Positions 24,480-41,936 of a stretch of 64,000 bases of DNA are shown in pieces. How positions within the stretch are numbered: the first letter of the stretch is position 1; each line of letters opens with the position of its first letter. Position numbers and translations under genes: made by a program. Source of the stretch: Elusimicrobium minutum Pei191 (GTDB taxonomy: Bacteria; Elusimicrobiota; Elusimicrobia; Elusimicrobiales; Elusimicrobiaceae); assembly GCF_000020145.1 (NCBI RefSeq), contig NC_010644.1, forward strand, positions 1,054,001 to 1,118,000, written 5' to 3'. Below the pieces are notes generated by a model. It saw nothing but the letters and a program-made list of their open reading frames with translations, was not told the origin of the DNA and did no database searches.

Positions 24480-25724
24480 TTACTGGTAGGACGAGGTTTC
24501 ATCAAAATATAATAAATAATCAAACCCATCTGTATTTGGGTCCAGTTTTAGAGCAAATTTTTTGCTTGATGCTTTTGTTGCTTCAAAACGGATATAATCT
24601 GAATAATCTAAAAATTCGTCTTTAGCGGAAGCGCCAAACAATATTTCTCCTTCTCTCCACGGTTTCCCGCCAACAATTGTTACAGAGAGTATTTCCTTTT
24701 CTGGTATATATTGTTTTAGAATAGAAGGAATGCTGTACTTTACGTTATAATAAGCAAGCGCAAGAGAATTATCAACATTACTTTTTATTATATGGCCCAT
24801 ACCTGCGATCACAACAATCTTATTTTCTTGAGCAGAAGCCAAAGAAGAGATAAAGGAGACGGCAATTCTATTTCTAGTAGAAACACTTCCGTTTGAATCA
24901 TAGGCGTAACAATAAATTTCAGGAGATTCTTTTAGTATCAAATACGTCAAATAAATCCAATGCTTTAGTTGTTCATGTGTCGCAATGTTGGGATAGTGTT
25001 CCTTAGCATACACAACGGCAGCGTTCAATAATTCTTTTTCATCTTGAATAATATTAATGTTTTGTTTTAGAAAATCATATCCAAAATTTACACTTTCATC
25101 AAACTCAAGTAATAGATGTGTTATTTTATCTTCTTCTTTGGCGGTTTTGTTGTAAGCAATGATGTTTTTTACCATAGATACTGAAGGGGATCTATATACG
25201 TGATTTTCACCCAAAAGAATAATTCTGCTCTTTAATACTTCAAAAGGATTTTGCATTTTAATGGTGTTTTTTACTTTAGAAGCATAGTGTTTTTTAATTT
25301 TTTCAGGGGATAGCATCAATCTTTCTATAGTTTCTATATATCCTGGGCGATAATCTTGGGATATCACAGGTTTGGAGTTTTCTAGCGATAACTTAGCTAT
25401 GACGTCAGAAAGGAATTCTTTCTCTTTGTTTGATATCTTATTTTTTTGCAGCCTTGTTTGCAAGGCCTCAATTTTTTTTGAAATTCCTTTGCCATCCTCT
25501 TTAAAAATTCGACTTTTATAATTGGAAGCATTGGATGGATGAAGGGTTAGTATCTGTTCAATATCTATATTTTTGAGGTTAATAGCTTGGTTTGTTGGGA
25601 AAAGATCTTGCAAAGAACTGATTTCAGTATTCAATTCTTTATTAGAATTTTTTTTTGGATTGTTTTGCGCAAATATGGAAATGCACAATATAAGCAACCC
25701 TGAAAAGATAATTAGTTTTTTCAT
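24480..25724 (-). CDS. Secreted TIKI/ChaN/EreA-superfamily protein
   Basis: 414 residues from the ATG at 25724 (GGAGGTAGT before it). A signal peptide (KKLIIFSGLLILCISIFA) is followed by a Lys/Asn-rich region, then the superfamily core: RIILLGENHVYRSPS (GExH metal-binding type), THLLLEFDESVNFG and IVVIAGMGHIIKS. Members include haem-uptake ChaN, erythromycin esterase and TIKI peptidases. Only the fold is clear, not the substrate. A second, divergent member lies at 40866. The promoter region holds a 14-base inverted repeat. Confidence 0.65.
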   Translation of the reverse strand: MKKLIIFSGLLILCISIFAQNNPKKNSNKELNTEISSLQDLFPTNQAINLKNIDIEQILTLHPSNASNYKSRIFKEDGKGISKKIEALQTRLQKNKISNKEKEFLSDVIAKLSLENSKPVISQDYRPGYIETIERLMLSPEKIKKHYASKVKNTIKMQNPFEVLKSRIILLGENHVYRSPSVSMVKNIIAYNKTAKEEDKITHLLLEFDESVNFGYDFLKQNINIIQDEKELLNAAVVYAKEHYPNIATHEQLKHWIYLTYLILKESPEIYCYAYDSNGSVSTRNRIAVSFISSLASAQENKIVVIAGMGHIIKSNVDNSLALAYYNVKYSIPSILKQYIPEKEILSVTIVGGKPWREGEILFGASAKDEFLDYSDYIRFEATKASSKKFALKLDPNTDGFDYLLYFDETSSYQ

Positions 25725-25786
25725 ACTACCTCCATATAAGAAAATTCCATATATAAACATAGCATATAGAGAGAGATAAAAACAGG

Positions 25787-28578: not shown

Positions 28579-31500
28579 TTACTCATCCTTATTTATTCTG
28601 GCAATTATTTTCTCAAGCGCGCCGCCTTTCATAAAATCGTCATGAACAGCCTCTATTTTTATAATTTCCAAATTATTTACATATTTGGAAAAGCCGTTAT
28701 CAATTCTCCCAATCTCTTCTGTCTGGGCGGTAAAAAGCAATTCTCTTAACTCACCTTTAATCATTCTTGGAACAGGTGATATTTTTGTAGATTTAAACAA
28801 TATTACCTTACCGCCGTAAGGCTTGGGATTATAGGAAAAAATATCATTCATCATTCTTTTATTGTTTTCAACCAGCCTTTCTGTAAGGCCCAGCTTTTTA
28901 AATCTTTCAAACATAGGGTCATTTTTAAGATAGTCATGAAAGAAAGATGTTTGGTTTAATTTATCATTAAGCTTTTTTCTTTGCTCGGAATAATCAACGC
29001 CCGGATCTAGCAAAAAAAGTTTTTCAATACTTTCGCCTTGCGCGCTTAGTTGCGCGGCCATCTCATAAGCAACCAATCCTCCGAAGGACCATCCTCCCAA
29101 AATATACGGGCCTTGCGGCTTTACGGCATGCATATATTGAATATATTTTTTTGCAATATTTTCCACGCCTGCAATGATTTCCTTATCTTGGAAAAGGTTA
29201 TACGGCTCTATCCCGTAAAAAGGACAGTCTTTTCTTAACTTTCTTGCCAGCGGCAAATACGCTTCCGGCCCGGTGTTGCCCGTATGCACAAAAAACATAG
29301 GATTTTTGGCCCCTTTATCAGAGAAAACATGAATCATTGGAAAAGGGTTGTTTTTAGACAAATATTCGGATTGCTGCCTAAGTACCGGGTAACGAAAAAT
29401 TTCCGCGGGGTTAATTTTTTTATTAAAAATTTCCCTTATCCTTAAAACAAGTTCCGTTGTTGATAAAGAAGTTCCGCCAAGATCAAAAAAATTGTCATTA
29501 GCGCTTATTTTATCAAGTTTTATTCCCAAAATTTCAGCCCATATAATTGCAATTTCTTTTTCCGCAATGCCTTGAGGAGCGGCAAAATTATCTCTCCTGA
29601 CTACTCCGAATACCGGCGGCGGCAATTTGCGGTGAGCGACTTTACCGTTAGGATTAAAGGGAATAGCCTCAATCTGAGTTGTAGTGGCGGGCACCATATA
29701 AGAAGGAAGTTCCTGCTCAATAAACTTATGAAGCTCTGTTATATCAATTTTTTTATCCGCCACTATATAAGCAAGCGCTCTTTTACCGCCGCCCGGAGCG
29801 TCATTAGCAATAACAACCGCGTCTTTTACGGCGGGGTATGCGCGTATTCTGCCTTCTATTTCGGTAAGCTCAACCCTGAAACCGCGTATTTTTACCTGGG
29901 AATCACGCCTGCCCATAAAATCAATATCCCCGCCGGGTAAATATCTGGCTATATCGCCTGTTCGGTATATTTTGTCAAAACCCGCTTCACGGATAAAAGG
30001 ATTTTCCACAAATTTTTCTTTAGTTTCTTGGGGGTTATCCAAGTAACCTTTTGCAAGCTGCGGGCCTGCTATACAAAGTTCACCCACTACTCCTACGGGA
30101 GCTATGTTATTATATTTATCAAGCATAAAAATAGCGCTGTTAGGCACAGGCTTACCCAAAGGTATACGCTCATATAACTTATCAACTATAAACATACTGG
30201 CGCAGGCGGTGCACTCCGTGGGGCCGTAGCCGTTATATAAAAGATAGCCTTTTGGCGGTTCTAATGGAACCAAAGCTTCCCCGCCTACCATAAGGTATTT
30301 TAAAGAATTATTGCTTATTGTTTCGGCGAATTTGCGGCCCATTTGAGTTGTCATAAAAACGCTTGTTACGCTGTTTTTTTCAAAATAATCATTTAACCTG
30401 GTAAGGTCAAGTTTAAGTTCATCGGCTATTACATGCAGGCAAGAGCCGCAGTATAGGGAAGAAAAAATATCCATCATGGAAGCGTCAAAACCAAAGCTGG
30501 CGTAAGTTGCCATATTGTCTGTATTTTTAACGCCAAGCTTTTGCTTAACCCAAACGCACAAAGCCATAATGTTAGCATGCGTTATAATAACGCCTTTAGG
30601 AGTGCCTGTCGTGCCTGATGTATAAAGCACCACCGCGCAATCTGAAGGGGCTACGCCGGCAATATCTTTTTTATCTTCAGGCGATTTAAGAAAATAAATA
30701 TCTTTCGTAAGTAAAACACCGCATTCACATTCCGGCAAAAGATAAAGAAGATCCTCGTCGGCTATCAAAATTTTGGCTTTAGTTTGCTGCAACATAAATT
30801 TAAGCCTTTCGGGCGGATACACAAAATCAAAAGGCACATAAGCCGCGCCCGCTTTAACCGCGCCTAAAACACAAACGGGCATAAGCTCGCTTCGTTTTAC
30901 CAAAATAGCAATGCAGTCACCCTTTTTTACTCCCCTCTCCCTAAGTTTAGCGGCAATATTGTCAGAAATATTTTTTACCTGCTTATAAGTTAAAACTTTA
31001 TCCTCATATTTTATTGCGGGATTTTCGGGAAAATCTTTGGCGTTTTGCTCAAAAACGTCAATCACCGTCATTGTTTTATCATATTCTATTTCCGAACCTT
31101 TAAACTTTTTAAGAATATGGTTTCTTTGAGGCTCCGGAAGGAGTGAAATAGAAGAAAGTTTCTTTTCCTCACTGCCTTTTGCGGTTATATTTTTAATAAC
31201 AAATTCAAGCTGCTCTAAAATATTTTTAGGAATACGGCTTTCATAAAGAATATCCGAGTAGGACAAAACCAGCCTGATAATATCCCCCCGCCGCAGAAAT
31301 TCAAATTGTAAATCAACCGGGTAGCCTTCCGTATTACGCGGCTCCTGCCTGATTGTAAGGCCTGCCACATTCACGTCAGGAAACTCATATAAATAATTTA
31401 CGATAACATCAAATAGAGGATGCCTGCTTAAATCACGGCGCGACACAAAAGAAGAAACAAGCGAAGACAAAGGATAGGACTGGTTTTTTTTAGCTTCTTT

Positions 31501-32433
31501 TAAAAGGACTGCCGCTTCGGCAATAAAATCTTTTAAAAGCATATCCCCTTTTGGTTTTAAACGAAGCGGAATTATATTTGAAAACATACCTACAATATTT
31601 TTCGTTTCTTCCGTATCTCTGCCGCTCATGGCTGAACCGAATGTAATATCTTCACTCGCGCAATACTTGCCTATCGTTACCGCGCAGGCCGCCATTATAA
31701 TAACATAAGGCATTACGCCAAACTCTTTTGCTTTATTTAAAATCATGTTTGCTTCTATAACACTTTCCAAACGGCTGTTGCTTGCGGGCAGCACGTCAGG
31801 CCTTTTAGCTATTGCGATGGGCATGTCATTTTCAGGCACACCGTCAACGAAAATATTTTTAAAGAACTTTTTTTTCTTTTTAAGTTCTTCCTCATTGTTT
31901 TGTTGTGAAACGGCGAAGTCAAGATAATCAGCCTGTAAAGGAAGCTTTAGATTTTCATTTTCATAAAGCTGCCAAAGTTCATTTATAAAAATACTTATAC
32001 CTATGCCGTCAATAATTATGTGGTGCGCCTCAAAAAGAAAAATATTCTTTTTTTGTCCGACTTTAAAAAGAGTAAAGCGGAATAATTTATCATTGGAGAT
32101 ATCATACGGTTTATTGGAAGCGTTTATTTCTTCTTTAGCGAGTTGTAAGGAACATTCTTTGATTGTAAGAACATTTGATACTTTATCAAAAATTTTACGG
32201 ATAAATTTATTTTCCCGCAAAGGATAGTGGGAACGCATAATCCTATGCCTTTCAATAAGACGGCAAAGGGCTTTCTCAAACTTTATTTCGTCCAGCTCGC
32301 CCGTTATTGTAAACTCAAATTTAATGTTATATACAGTGCTGCCGGGGTTTATGCCGTATTCTGTAATTATTTGGCGTTCATTATATGTAAGGGGCCAAAC
32401 TTCGGGAGTTGTTTTTCTTTGTTGTATGGGCAT
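28579..32433 (-). CDS. Single-module nonribosomal peptide synthetase, C-A-PCP-TE
   Basis: 1284 residues. Condensation domain about 10-440 with intact HHIIIDG (137-143). Adenylation domain about 455-935 with LYTSGTTGTPKG (603-614), YGPTE (736-740), YRTGD (823-827) and the catalytic NPNGK Lys930. Carrier domain about 950-1025 with the phosphopantetheine Ser989 in LGGTSL. Thioesterase about 1045-1284 with GWSFG (Ser1116), LLDPG Asp1143 and His1264. All catalytic residues are present. By manual alignment to GrsA the specificity residues read approximately D-A-M-F-M-G-G-A-C-K, pointing to a hydrophobic amino acid. A terminal C domain without a loading module suggests the donor comes from elsewhere, perhaps the ATP-grasp partner. 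Confidence 0.93.
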   Translation of the reverse strand: MPIQQRKTTPEVWPLTYNERQIITEYGINPGSTVYNIKFEFTITGELDEIKFEKALCRLIERHRIMRSHYPLRENKFIRKIFDKVSNVLTIKECSLQLAKEEINASNKPYDISNDKLFRFTLFKVGQKKNIFLFEAHHIIIDGIGISIFINELWQLYENENLKLPLQADYLDFAVSQQNNEEELKKKKKFFKNIFVDGVPENDMPIAIAKRPDVLPASNSRLESVIEANMILNKAKEFGVMPYVIIMAACAVTIGKYCASEDITFGSAMSGRDTEETKNIVGMFSNIIPLRLKPKGDMLLKDFIAEAAVLLKEAKKNQSYPLSSLVSSFVSRRDLSRHPLFDVIVNYLYEFPDVNVAGLTIRQEPRNTEGYPVDLQFEFLRRGDIIRLVLSYSDILYESRIPKNILEQLEFVIKNITAKGSEEKKLSSISLLPEPQRNHILKKFKGSEIEYDKTMTVIDVFEQNAKDFPENPAIKYEDKVLTYKQVKNISDNIAAKLRERGVKKGDCIAILVKRSELMPVCVLGAVKAGAAYVPFDFVYPPERLKFMLQQTKAKILIADEDLLYLLPECECGVLLTKDIYFLKSPEDKKDIAGVAPSDCAVVLYTSGTTGTPKGVIITHANIMALCVWVKQKLGVKNTDNMATYASFGFDASMMDIFSSLYCGSCLHVIADELKLDLTRLNDYFEKNSVTSVFMTTQMGRKFAETISNNSLKYLMVGGEALVPLEPPKGYLLYNGYGPTECTACASMFIVDKLYERIPLGKPVPNSAIFMLDKYNNIAPVGVVGELCIAGPQLAKGYLDNPQETKEKFVENPFIREAGFDKIYRTGDIARYLPGGDIDFMGRRDSQVKIRGFRVELTEIEGRIRAYPAVKDAVVIANDAPGGGKRALAYIVADKKIDITELHKFIEQELPSYMVPATTTQIEAIPFNPNGKVAHRKLPPPVFGVVRRDNFAAPQGIAEKEIAIIWAEILGIKLDKISANDNFFDLGGTSLSTTELVLRIREIFNKKINPAEIFRYPVLRQQSEYLSKNNPFPMIHVFSDKGAKNPMFFVHTGNTGPEAYLPLARKLRKDCPFYGIEPYNLFQDKEIIAGVENIAKKYIQYMHAVKPQGPYILGGWSFGGLVAYEMAAQLSAQGESIEKLFLLDPGVDYSEQRKKLNDKLNQTSFFHDYLKNDPMFERFKKLGLTERLVENNKRMMNDIFSYNPKPYGGKVILFKSTKISPVPRMIKGELRELLFTAQTEEIGRIDNGFSKYVNNLEIIKIEAVHDDFMKGGALEKIIARINKDE

Positions 32434-32450
32434 GATAGGTTTCCTTAAAA

Positions 32451-34076
32451 TTATAAAATTTTTATTTCCCCGGTTTTTTCGATGCGGCCTTTATCTCCTG
32501 TTTTAAATAAAAAGGGCTCCGCGGCCACGGGAAGAAAAACGCTGTAAAACGGATTAGGGATAAGAGTTTCTTTAGTCCGTTTATCCTCATAAAGCTGTTT
32601 GCCCGCTATATACACATCTCCAATTTCACCGTTAAGGCAGGGCAGCATTAAGTCATTTAAAACATATAAAACACTGTTTTCAAAATCTTTATATTTTAAT
32701 TCAAAACCTTTAAAAAGAGTGTCATATTCATCACATAAAGAGCCTTTATCCTTAATTTTTGCTAAAAGTTCCTTTTCAAAAGCCATAGGCACGGCGTCTT
32801 TAGGCTCATACAAAAGGCCGGGCGCGCAAACTTCTAAAAATCGCGCGGTTTTATAGGCGTTTATAATCTCTTCCTCTTGCTCGCTTATAAAAACACCTTC
32901 ACCGGGCATTGTAGGCATATCAATAGTTTTTTTAACGCGCATACTTTGCCGGGCAAGCGCAAAAGTCAGCTCTCTAACGCAGGGAAGCTCCCCTAAACTG
33001 TCAAAAACAGGAAGGGAAGATATTTCCGCATTCGCATAAGAAATAAAATATTTATAAAGAAAAGATTTTTTGGGATTATAAGGCTTAAGCATATTTTCTT
33101 TATGCTTTACGCCGTCAAGATAGCTGTCAAGAATCAAATCAATGCTGTTGCGGCCCAAGGCTTCCCAATAAATTTCGCTAAGCCTTCCCATAACTCTGGC
33201 GCCTGTTTCTATAAGAACCGGGCCTTCGGGTGTAAGCATTATTTCCGTGTGGGACGCGCCGTATTTAATACCCAAAACATTAAGAACTTTAAAAGTATAA
33301 TCTACGCATTCTTTAAATTCCGGAGTAAGGTTTTTTATTAAAAGAGAAGCGTCGTATACAGGGTTTTTATCAACGGTTAATATTTTGTTGTAAATCATTA
33401 CATCAGTTAAAATATGCTCCCCCCCGCGCGAAACGCAGTTAACAACAATTTCTTTGCCTTCTATAAACTGCTCAACCAAAACCTCGTCATTTTTTCTGCC
33501 AAAGCCGTCTTTTGTGCCTATCAAAGACTCAAAAGCCTTTTTTACGCTGTCCTTATCTTCACAAACTTTAACACCGTCAGTTCCCGCGCTCATAAGCGGT
33601 TTTATAACAATTTTTTTAAAATTATTTTTTTCAATCCAGGAAAGAGCCTCTTCAACCTTGGCTGTTTTTAAAAAAGAGATATATTTTAAGCCCGCGTTTT
33701 TAAGAGCCTGCTGCATAAGGTGCTTATCCCTTCTAAGGGCAACTGTCTTAAAATCATTGGAAGGCAGTTTAAAGTATTCGGACAAACGTTCCGCTACTTC
33801 CACGCCGCTTTCCGTACCGGGTATAACAGCGGCGAAATTATGTTTGCCAAATTCTTCCAACAAGGACTGGAGTGAATCAGGCATGAGATAAGTTGTTTGA
33901 TAACTTGTCCCTATTTGCGAGGCAATGTATTTTTCAATAACATCTTGCGGAAGTGAAGTATTTTTTTCCATCCCCGAAGTAAGGTGAAAAGGAGTAATGC
34001 CTCTTTCTTTTAGGCGGTCAGCATAATATTTACCTGTGGAGTATCCGTCAACTATAAGTACTTTGCCTTTATCCAT
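32451..34076 (-). CDS. ATP-grasp ligase with a C-terminal adenylation-domain fragment
   Basis: 541 residues. Residues about 1-410 are an ATP-grasp ligase of the BacD/carboxylate-amine type: KKIVIKPLMSAGTDGVK (155-170), ASHTEIM (274-280) and VLIETGAR (287-294) carry ATP and Mg2+ ligands. Residues about 455-541 match the neighbouring NRPS A domain (758-840) step by step: NSVLYVLND, GEIGDVYIAGKQL, TKETLIPNPF, LFKTGDKGRI and GEIKIL. The match stops just before the GRxDxQ hinge motif. Seventeen bases separate its stop from the NRPS start. It probably activates a carboxylic acid or joins amino acids in the same pathway. Confidence 0.82.
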   Translation of the reverse strand: MDKGKVLIVDGYSTGKYYADRLKERGITPFHLTSGMEKNTSLPQDVIEKYIASQIGTSYQTTYLMPDSLQSLLEEFGKHNFAAVIPGTESGVEVAERLSEYFKLPSNDFKTVALRRDKHLMQQALKNAGLKYISFLKTAKVEEALSWIEKNNFKKIVIKPLMSAGTDGVKVCEDKDSVKKAFESLIGTKDGFGRKNDEVLVEQFIEGKEIVVNCVSRGGEHILTDVMIYNKILTVDKNPVYDASLLIKNLTPEFKECVDYTFKVLNVLGIKYGASHTEIMLTPEGPVLIETGARVMGRLSEIYWEALGRNSIDLILDSYLDGVKHKENMLKPYNPKKSFLYKYFISYANAEISSLPVFDSLGELPCVRELTFALARQSMRVKKTIDMPTMPGEGVFISEQEEEIINAYKTARFLEVCAPGLLYEPKDAVPMAFEKELLAKIKDKGSLCDEYDTLFKGFELKYKDFENSVLYVLNDLMLPCLNGEIGDVYIAGKQLYEDKRTKETLIPNPFYSVFLPVAAEPFLFKTGDKGRIEKTGEIKIL

Positions 34077-34424
34077 AATAAACCTTTACAATGAACTATA
34101 TTAAATGAAAACCGCTCCCTTACTGAAAACTTAAGGAGCTTTATGGAAAGAAGCGACAAGGAAAGTAAACATTTTTAATAAATCTATATGAGCCTACTTC
34201 CTTAGCCGCATTTTACTTAAACAAAGATTTTCTCAAATCCCGTTTTGCGCTTTCCGCTCATATTTTCAGGCGCTTTTACCGATATAATCTATTATATCAA
34301 TATTTTATATATCAATATTTTGATTTTCAATATATAATTTTTAAAAAAGATATACGTAAAACTGTTTTTTGCACCTTATCTATATATCCGAATCATTATA
34401 CCCAAATCATTTTAAAAATAAAAA
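34077..34424. promoter_or_regulatory. Intergenic region upstream of the ATP-grasp/NRPS operon with AT-rich direct repeats
   Basis: ATATCAATATTTT occurs at 34294-34306 and 34309-34321, a 15-base period, in a very AT-rich block about 220 bases before the operon start. TATAAT-like boxes lie nearby (for example 34281-34290). This is a plausible promoter/operator region for the natural-product operon. No gene is supported here. Confidence 0.4.
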
Positions 34425-40865: not shown

Positions 40866-41936
40866 ATGAGGAAATACTGCTTATTAATAATACTGTTGTT
40901 ATCTGCCGTCCGGGTTTTTGCGGATGCGCGGTTAACAGACGTTTATAACAATATTTCCGCAGCCGTAAAAAACAGCCCCAACAGCAAGACTGTTAAAGAA
41001 ATAAAAAAATCATACAAACCCAAAATTCCATGGTATATAATGGATGAAGAATACTTAATGGATTACGTAAAAAAGCACGCTACAGTGTATGGTGCGGAAT
41101 CGCTTCCGTTTGATTTTTACTTTAATCTTTTTGATTCTAACGATTTAGTTTTATTCGGCGAAATACATGATTATAAAATTCCCAGAAAAATGTCTTTACG
41201 AATGGTATGGGAATATAATAAAAAATTTCCTTCCAAAGCCGTTAAAAATGTATTTTTTGAGGAAGATGAATCCTTCCAACATAAAGTAACCCAAATAGAA
41301 GAAGCATTCAAAGACGCTGATGAGAAAGAAATAGAAAAAAGGTGCGACAGCTTTTACTCCTCATACTGTATACCGGACGAAGCCGCCTGCAGGCTTATAG
41401 CGCAAGGAGTTAAATTTACTTTTATAGATTTAGACCATGACCCTTCAATGAGATATATAAAAGGAACTTCAATAAGTTTGCTTTCCGATGAGGGCCTTAC
41501 AAAAAGAAACGAGGCAATGTTTAAAAAAATAAAAGAAGCCGTTGAAAAAGACGAAAAGTCGGTCTTTTTAGGCGGGCAGGCTCATATTTATAACTATGGG
41601 TTTAATGGCAACAGCCAAACCTTAACAATGTTGGCAAAAAATAATTTTAATAAAAACATAAAGTTTACCTCCGTTATTCACGCTGGCGGAGCGTGGGAAG
41701 ATGACGGGCTGCTTCCCAGGCACATTATTGAAGAAACAAAAGATTATAAATCTTTTAAAGGCAAGGGCAGTCCTGATAAGTTTGAAAAGTGGCAGGCTAC
41801 CTACGCTTTTGAAGAAAACGCCGTAATTAAAATGGTTCCGAAAGGCATGGAAAAACACTCCGCCTACAAAGCGCCTCCGGCGGATTATATGGTTATTTTC
41901 CATAATAAATTATATTCTAAAAATATTTTTAAATAA
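40866..41936 (+). CDS. Second TIKI/ChaN-superfamily secreted protein
   Basis: 356 residues with a signal peptide (LLIILLLSAVRVFA). The core motifs are LVLFGEIHDYKIPRKMS (GExH), NVFFEEDESFQHKV and VFLGGQAHIYNYG, in the same order and spacing as in the protein encoded at 24480. ChaN-like proteins bind haem; TIKI and EreA relatives are hydrolases. The two window members differ strongly outside the motifs, so they are old paralogues or separate acquisitions. Monocistronic, with an AT-rich promoter region. Confidence 0.68.
   Translation: MRKYCLLIILLLSAVRVFADARLTDVYNNISAAVKNSPNSKTVKEIKKSYKPKIPWYIMDEEYLMDYVKKHATVYGAESLPFDFYFNLFDSNDLVLFGEIHDYKIPRKMSLRMVWEYNKKFPSKAVKNVFFEEDESFQHKVTQIEEAFKDADEKEIEKRCDSFYSSYCIPDEAACRLIAQGVKFTFIDLDHDPSMRYIKGTSISLLSDEGLTKRNEAMFKKIKEAVEKDEKSVFLGGQAHIYNYGFNGNSQTLTMLAKNNFNKNIKFTSVIHAGGAWEDDGLLPRHIIEETKDYKSFKGKGSPDKFEKWQATYAFEENAVIKMVPKGMEKHSAYKAPPADYMVIFHNKLYSKNIFK

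What the first reader, a model, noticed from the sequence alone, without database searches (positions are those of the whole stretch)
32451..34076. ATP-grasp ligase carrying an adenylation-domain fragment, next to an NRPS
Seen: residues about 455-541 align with the neighbouring NRPS A domain 758-840 in order (NSVLYVLND, GEIGDVYIAG, TKETLIPNPF, KTGDKGR, GEIKIL) and end exactly before the GRxDxQ hinge that joins the A core and A sub domains. Known: A domains need both parts for catalysis, so the fragment is not an enzyme by itself. Inference: it could be a docking or regulatory piece (for example mimicking an A-domain surface), or the scar of a fused A domain. I know of no described family with this architecture. 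Together with the NRPS and MFS genes it may define a small hybrid peptide pathway.
Basis: partly seen in the sequence, partly recalled or inferred. Interest (0 to 1): 0.75.

Follow-up and report, generated by a model that had tools for sequence, protein, structure and literature searches.

The report
ATP-grasp ligase–NRPS hybrid with A-domain barrel
A gut Elusimicrobia bacterium and six related species carry a peptide-making machine in which an ATP-grasp ligase stands where the first amino-acid-loading module should be, joined to the rest by a small, conserved piece of an adenylation domain that folds but cannot catalyse by itself.

Summary
The 541-aa protein is a complete ATP-grasp ligase (residues 3-415) plus a linker and an A-domain piece (about 463-541) that ends at the hinge. 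The A-likeness is well above chance (TIGR01733 in 7 of 7 homologues, best 1e-13; PDB A domains 7e-9; Foldseek match to 6EBY chain B). The piece equals the beta-barrel end of A-core, the same 77-residue unit crystallised with an MbtH protein.

It is not a scar. Six sibling species (two other genera of the family) encode ATP-grasp–barrel–C–A–T–TE as one polypeptide of about 1845 aa; only the window's species has it as two genes 17 bp apart. The barrel is as conserved as the C domain, its synonymous sites are saturated while replacements are few, and it has one origin.

MbtH docking is unlikely: no MbtH gene was found in these genomes. Each genome has one C domain, and no carrier domain stands before it. 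I infer that the barrel is a non-catalytic structural or docking domain placing the ligase beside the C-A-T-TE module, and that the ligase replaces an A-T loading module. The chemistry is unproven; the multi-domain structure model failed. I found no description of this architecture in the open library searched.

The parts
32832..34076 (-). ATP-grasp L-amino-acid-ligase-type domain (residues 1-415)
   Evidence: NF005543 3-415, E 1.6e-101; closest solved chain 30vh_A 'L-amino acid ligase', 6-413, E 1.6e-56; motifs IKPxxSAGTDGV and H(T/S)E..ETGAR kept in 7 of 7 species
32697..32831 (-). variable, predicted helical linker (residues 416-460)
   Evidence: 27% identity to siblings against 41-46% for flanking domains; helices in the tail model
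32454..32696 (-). A-core beta-barrel piece (residues 461-541; A6-like GEIGDVYIAG, A7-like FLFKTGD), ending at the place of the hinge
   Evidence: TIGR01733 299-374/409; PDB profile hits; Foldseek to 6eby_B TMt 0.73; conserved and under purifying selection; single origin
32434..32453 (-). gene split: TAA stop, second in-frame TAA, ribosome-binding-like AAGGAAA, then ATG of the NRPS in another frame
   Evidence: sequence read; siblings are fused here
28579..32433 (-). NRPS module C-A-T-TE (1284 aa), core motifs present
   Evidence: Pfam; motifs; only C domain of the genome
27353..28576 (-). MFS exporter, 2 bp after the NRPS; the same position in the siblings
   Evidence: PF07690 1.4e-18, weak EntS similarity; sibling MFS 39-45% identical

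Best explanation
The locus encodes a two-gene version of a hybrid synthetase, ATP-grasp ligase-A-core barrel-C-A-T-TE, which sibling species make as one polypeptide. Shown here: the architecture, its conservation, the A-like fold of the piece, and the lack of an A-sub or T domain before the C domain. Inferred: the hybrid came from a two-module NRPS whose first A-T was replaced by an L-amino-acid-ligase-type ATP-grasp domain, with only the self-folding barrel end of the old A-core kept. The barrel does no chemistry. It is a structural or docking domain that packs beside the C-A-T-TE module, in cis in the siblings and probably in trans here, so that the ligase's acyl-phosphate chemistry happens next to the NRPS. 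The most likely chemistry is that the ligase joins a carboxylic acid (an amino acid, perhaps N-acetylated in the siblings) to an amine, and the NRPS module adds the amino acid chosen by its A domain and releases the short peptide by its TE, for export by the MFS protein.
For: Fused ORFs of 1842-1849 aa in six species, same domain order, MFS next. ATP-grasp relatives outside this group end at about residue 415-430: no tail seen in the plasmid matches or in the hits from 85, 369 and 395 genomes of three other classes. Barrel identity window-to-siblings 40.7%, equal to the C domain (40.5%), linker 27%. Tail pN 0.10-0.12 against pS 0.81-0.84 in two pairs, and 0.005 against 0.26 in the closest pair. 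Tails form one clade apart from the proteins' own A barrels, support 0.999. 6EBY chain B, a 77-residue A-domain piece crystallised without the rest of the A domain (bound to an MbtH protein), matches over its whole length by sequence and by fold. No gene in these 7 genomes supplies another C domain. Motifs of ATP-grasp, C, A, T and TE are present.
Against: The barrel model is only moderate (pLDDT 67.7, pTM 0.60). The ATP-grasp-barrel-C model failed (pLDDT 43.7, pTM 0.31), so no interface is shown. The C domain keeps HHxxxDG although no T domain precedes it, so the donor it would use is unknown. Only 7 sequences; no expression or chemistry data. Which state is older, fused or split, is not resolved.
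Confidence: 0.55

Rival explanations
1. The barrel is an integral cap of the ATP-grasp enzyme, needed for its folding, dimerisation or substrate closure, and has nothing to do with the NRPS.
For: In the window's species the barrel stays on the ligase although the gene is split, and is no faster evolving than the C domain.
Against: The ligase family is complete at about residue 415 and all tested relatives elsewhere lack the barrel; the linker between them is the least conserved part (27%); the barrel comes from an NRPS-type A domain and precedes a C domain in all siblings.
Confidence: 0.22
2. The barrel is a binding site for an MbtH-like protein or other helper.
For: The same unit forms the MbtH-binding region in 6EBY; [quoted passage not shown]
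Against: No MbtH match over the family cut-off in any of 8 genomes, 6 of them at least 90% complete. A helper of another family cannot be excluded.
Confidence: 0.08
3. Decaying leftover of a deleted A domain, kept only because it is in frame.
For: The hinge motif and everything after it are lost, as expected from a deletion.
Against: One origin before the genera split, retained in 7 of 7 species, strong excess of synonymous over replacement change.
Confidence: 0.06
4. The barrel is only a rigid spacer between ligase and C domain in the fused form, and has no job of its own in the window's species.
For: Position between two domains in all siblings; no catalytic site of its own.
Against: The window-species barrel shows no faster change than its neighbours, although synonymous saturation blocks a direct branch test.
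Confidence: 0.09

Closest known systems
PDB 6EBY: FscH A-domain interface-forming region with MbtH-like FscK
   Same: Same 77-residue beta-barrel unit, matched from end to end by sequence (1.6e-8) and fold (TMt 0.73)
   Different: 6EBY is a laboratory fragment held by an MbtH protein; here it occurs naturally, in a genome without a detectable MbtH gene
PRK07206/NF005543 ATP-grasp L-amino acid ligases (DdaF of dapdiamide is related)
   Same: Residues 3-415 cover nearly the whole family model above its cut-off
   Different: Family members found elsewhere carry no A-domain piece; those described in the papers read are stand-alone ligases (PMC12568646)
EntF-type C-A-T-TE terminal NRPS module (enterobactin)
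   Same: Same domain order, similar length, an MFS exporter with weak EntS similarity next to it
   Different: No aryl-carrier partner (EntB-type) is linked; the ATP-grasp is fused or adjacent upstream; no MbtH
Natural partial A-domain exchange in NRPS evolution
   Same: Recombination inside A domains is common in nature (PMC7486941)
   Different: Exchanges normally leave a working A domain; here a lone subdomain is kept without the rest

Membership tests
L-amino acid ligase (ATP-grasp, NF005543) | Full-length match above curated cut-off (302 bits) | tested here: met
   340 bits, model 2-408/416
L-amino acid ligase (ATP-grasp, NF005543) | ATP/Mg-binding motifs | tested here: met
   IKP..SAGTDGV and HxE..ETGAR in 7 of 7
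L-amino acid ligase (ATP-grasp, NF005543) | Dipeptide-forming activity | not testable with these tools
   needs an assay
NRPS adenylation domain (the tail) | Complete A-core (motifs A1-A7) and A-sub (A8-A10) | tested here: not met
   only profile positions 299-374 of 409 are matched; A8 hinge absent
NRPS adenylation domain (the tail) | Fold of the A-core beta-barrel subdomain | tested here: met
   Foldseek: 55 PDB matches at E <= 0.001, those listed are A-domain structures; 6eby_B TMt 0.73; model confidence moderate
MbtH-dependent A-domain interface | MbtH-like protein encoded in the genome | tested here: not met
   no match over cut-off in 8 genomes
C-A-T-TE NRPS module | HHxxxDG, A3-A10 motifs, T serine, TE GxSxG | tested here: met
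   all present in 7 of 7; phosphopantetheinyl transferase candidates in 6 of 7 genomes
Canonical two-module NRPS | Carrier (T) domain in front of the C domain, or a second NRPS supplying the donor | tested here: not met
   one C domain per genome; the only carrier match in this protein lies after its A domain

The most novel reading that the evidence does not exclude
A carrier-free loading module: the ATP-grasp domain replaces A-T altogether and acylates the amino acid bound on the only T domain (or feeds the C domain directly) with an acyl-phosphate, the retained A-core barrel holding the ligase in the place of the lost A domain. That would be a new way to start a nonribosomal peptide.
Probability: 0.2. 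Interest if true: 0.8.

Novelty: new variant of a known kind. Interest (0 to 1): 0.52.

Why it matters
It is a natural, conserved fusion of two non-ribosomal ways of making peptide bonds (acyl-phosphate ligases and thiotemplate NRPSs), with an A-domain subdomain living on as an independent unit. If the ligase feeds the module without a carrier, it changes the minimal parts list for starting a peptide; the barrel also offers a ready joint for engineering ligase–NRPS chimeras. The product would come from Elusimicrobia, a group for which I know of almost no characterised natural products.

Tried and rejected
Fused 1000-residue model of ATP-grasp–barrel–C: pLDDT 43.7, unusable. MbtH docking: no MbtH gene. 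Tail-bearing ATP-grasp proteins outside Elusimicrobiaceae: none in plasmids, phages, one scan of 84,980-species contigs (which used only two ATP-grasp peptide patterns), or about 850 genomes of three other classes; these sample, not exhaust, bacteria. Sequencing error as the cause of the split: rejected, two in-frame stops, a ribosome-binding-like site and a different frame. dN/dS by branch: synonymous sites saturated. Literature for ATP-grasp/NRPS fusions or partial A domains: nothing of this kind in the open library; subscription papers, including the 2009 genome paper, were not held. Known RNA elements around the operon: none. Compositional sign of recent transfer: GC of the operon 0.34-0.43, within the local range.

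Full report
Observation. The ORF at 34076..32451 on the minus strand encodes 541 aa. Residues 3-415 are a full-length ATP-grasp ligase of the PRK07206/NF005543 subfamily (340 bits, above the cut-off), nearest in the PDB to an L-amino acid ligase. Residues 463-541 align with 761-840 of the A domain of the next gene (31% identity, E 3e-4 in a two-sequence comparison) and with positions 299-374 of the A-domain model TIGR01733. The last residue lines up with the residue just before the GRRDSQ hinge.

What lies around it. The gene is followed after 17 bp by a 1284-aa NRPS, C-A-T-TE, and after 2 bp more by an MFS transporter. The genome is one contig of 1,643,562 bases; from memory this is the size of Elusimicrobium minutum Pei191, so I take that as the species (inference). 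It has one condensation domain in all.

Siblings. A search of relatives found three, then six, other species of the same family (two other genera) in which the ligase, the tail and C-A-T-TE are one ORF of 1842-1849 aa, again followed by an MFS gene. In the alignment the tail runs from the ligase straight into the C domain...KNSQLYVLND...GEKG.I.V.G...NPFY...FLYKTGD...DGSL.FIDKK...SFG...WPLT. No A-sub and no carrier domain intervene. In the window's species the chain is cut at the end of the tail: TAA, a second in-frame TAA, AAGGAAA, then an ATG in another frame; this is a real gene split in a complete genome, not a single base error. Which state is older is open.

Conservation. Window-to-sibling identity is 46% in the ligase, 41% in the barrel, 40.5% in C, but 27% in the linker before the barrel. 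Between siblings the barrel has 10-12% replacement change against saturated synonymous change, and in the closest pair 0.5% against 26%. The seven tails form one clade (0.999) apart from the proteins' own A barrels. The piece was gained once and is kept by selection. With 80 positions, the tree cannot say whether it came from the module's own A domain or from a lost first module.

Fold. The seven tails as a profile find PDB A domains (best 6.7e-9) and, end to end, the 77-residue chain 6eby_B (1.6e-8). AlphaFold2 on the seven tails alone gives a moderate model (pLDDT 67.7, pTM 0.60), and Foldseek places it on A domains, third 6eby_B with TM 0.73 by target length. That entry is titled the interface-forming region of FscH bound to the MbtH-like protein FscK. 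So the piece is a known self-contained unit, the beta-barrel end of A-core. It cannot be an adenylating enzyme: the amino-acid pocket, most of the ATP site, the hinge and A-sub are absent.

Function. The known partner of this surface, MbtH, is not detected in any of eight genomes, so MbtH docking is unlikely. The ATP-grasp family is complete without the tail, and the tail-less relatives elsewhere support that. What remains is a structural or docking role between ligase and NRPS, in cis or in trans, or a cap on the ligase. I put the first at 0.55. No interface could be predicted.

Chemistry. The motifs of ATP-grasp, C (HHxxxDG), A, T and TE are present. The only T domain of the hybrid lies after its A domain, and no second NRPS condensation domain exists. 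Other carriers are a small acyl carrier protein, and repeats in a 3027-residue frame which I take to be the known secondary-lipid synthase of this species (PMC3098273). So the C domain has no obvious donor, unless the ligase supplies it or bypasses it. In all six siblings a GNAT acetyltransferase overlaps the start of the hybrid gene; among 60 relatives it occurs only with the cluster, and it is absent from the window's genome. An N-acetylated substrate in the siblings is a guess.

Comparison and novelty. Stand-alone ATP-grasp ligases (DdaF, TabS, CysD, BelU) and C-A-T-TE modules (EntF) are known; partial A-domain exchange is common in NRPS evolution. In the open library I found no ATP-grasp–NRPS fusion and no naturally isolated A-core barrel. 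I therefore call it a new variant of a known kind: new combination, known parts, unproven chemistry.

Noticed in passing
L034:8526-8993 and the same place in L033, L035-L038: A 155-aa GNAT acetyltransferase overlaps or abuts the start of the fused hybrid gene in all six siblings, is found only with the cluster among 60 relatives, and is missing from the window's genome.
   Followed up: partly
L039:6222-8222: Deltaproteobacteria MAG: the same ATP-grasp family carries what looks like a SAM-methyltransferase domain at its C-terminus, beside a formyltransferase-like gene and an MFS-like gene.
   Followed up: no
L048:214-10248: Gammaproteobacteria MAG: a 2919-aa NRPS ending in TE is followed 12 bp later by a tail-less ATP-grasp gene of this family, so ligase and NRPS genes also pair elsewhere.
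   Followed up: no
window 24480-25760 (-) and 40866-41936 (+): Two proteins with LLGENHV / LFGEIHD motifs (ChaN/Tiki-like look) on either side of the operon; possible paralogues.
   Followed up: no
window 34077-34250 (-): Upstream of the ligase gene there are short inverted-repeat-like stretches (such as GCTCCTTAAG...AAGGGAGC) in about 390 bp of non-coding DNA; no Rfam match.
   Followed up: partly
window 28579-32433: The A-domain pocket regions differ between species (GFDASMMD, GFDACLSD, GFDACLMD; NGYGPTECTAC versus NAYGPTECTVY), so the products may differ.
   Followed up: no
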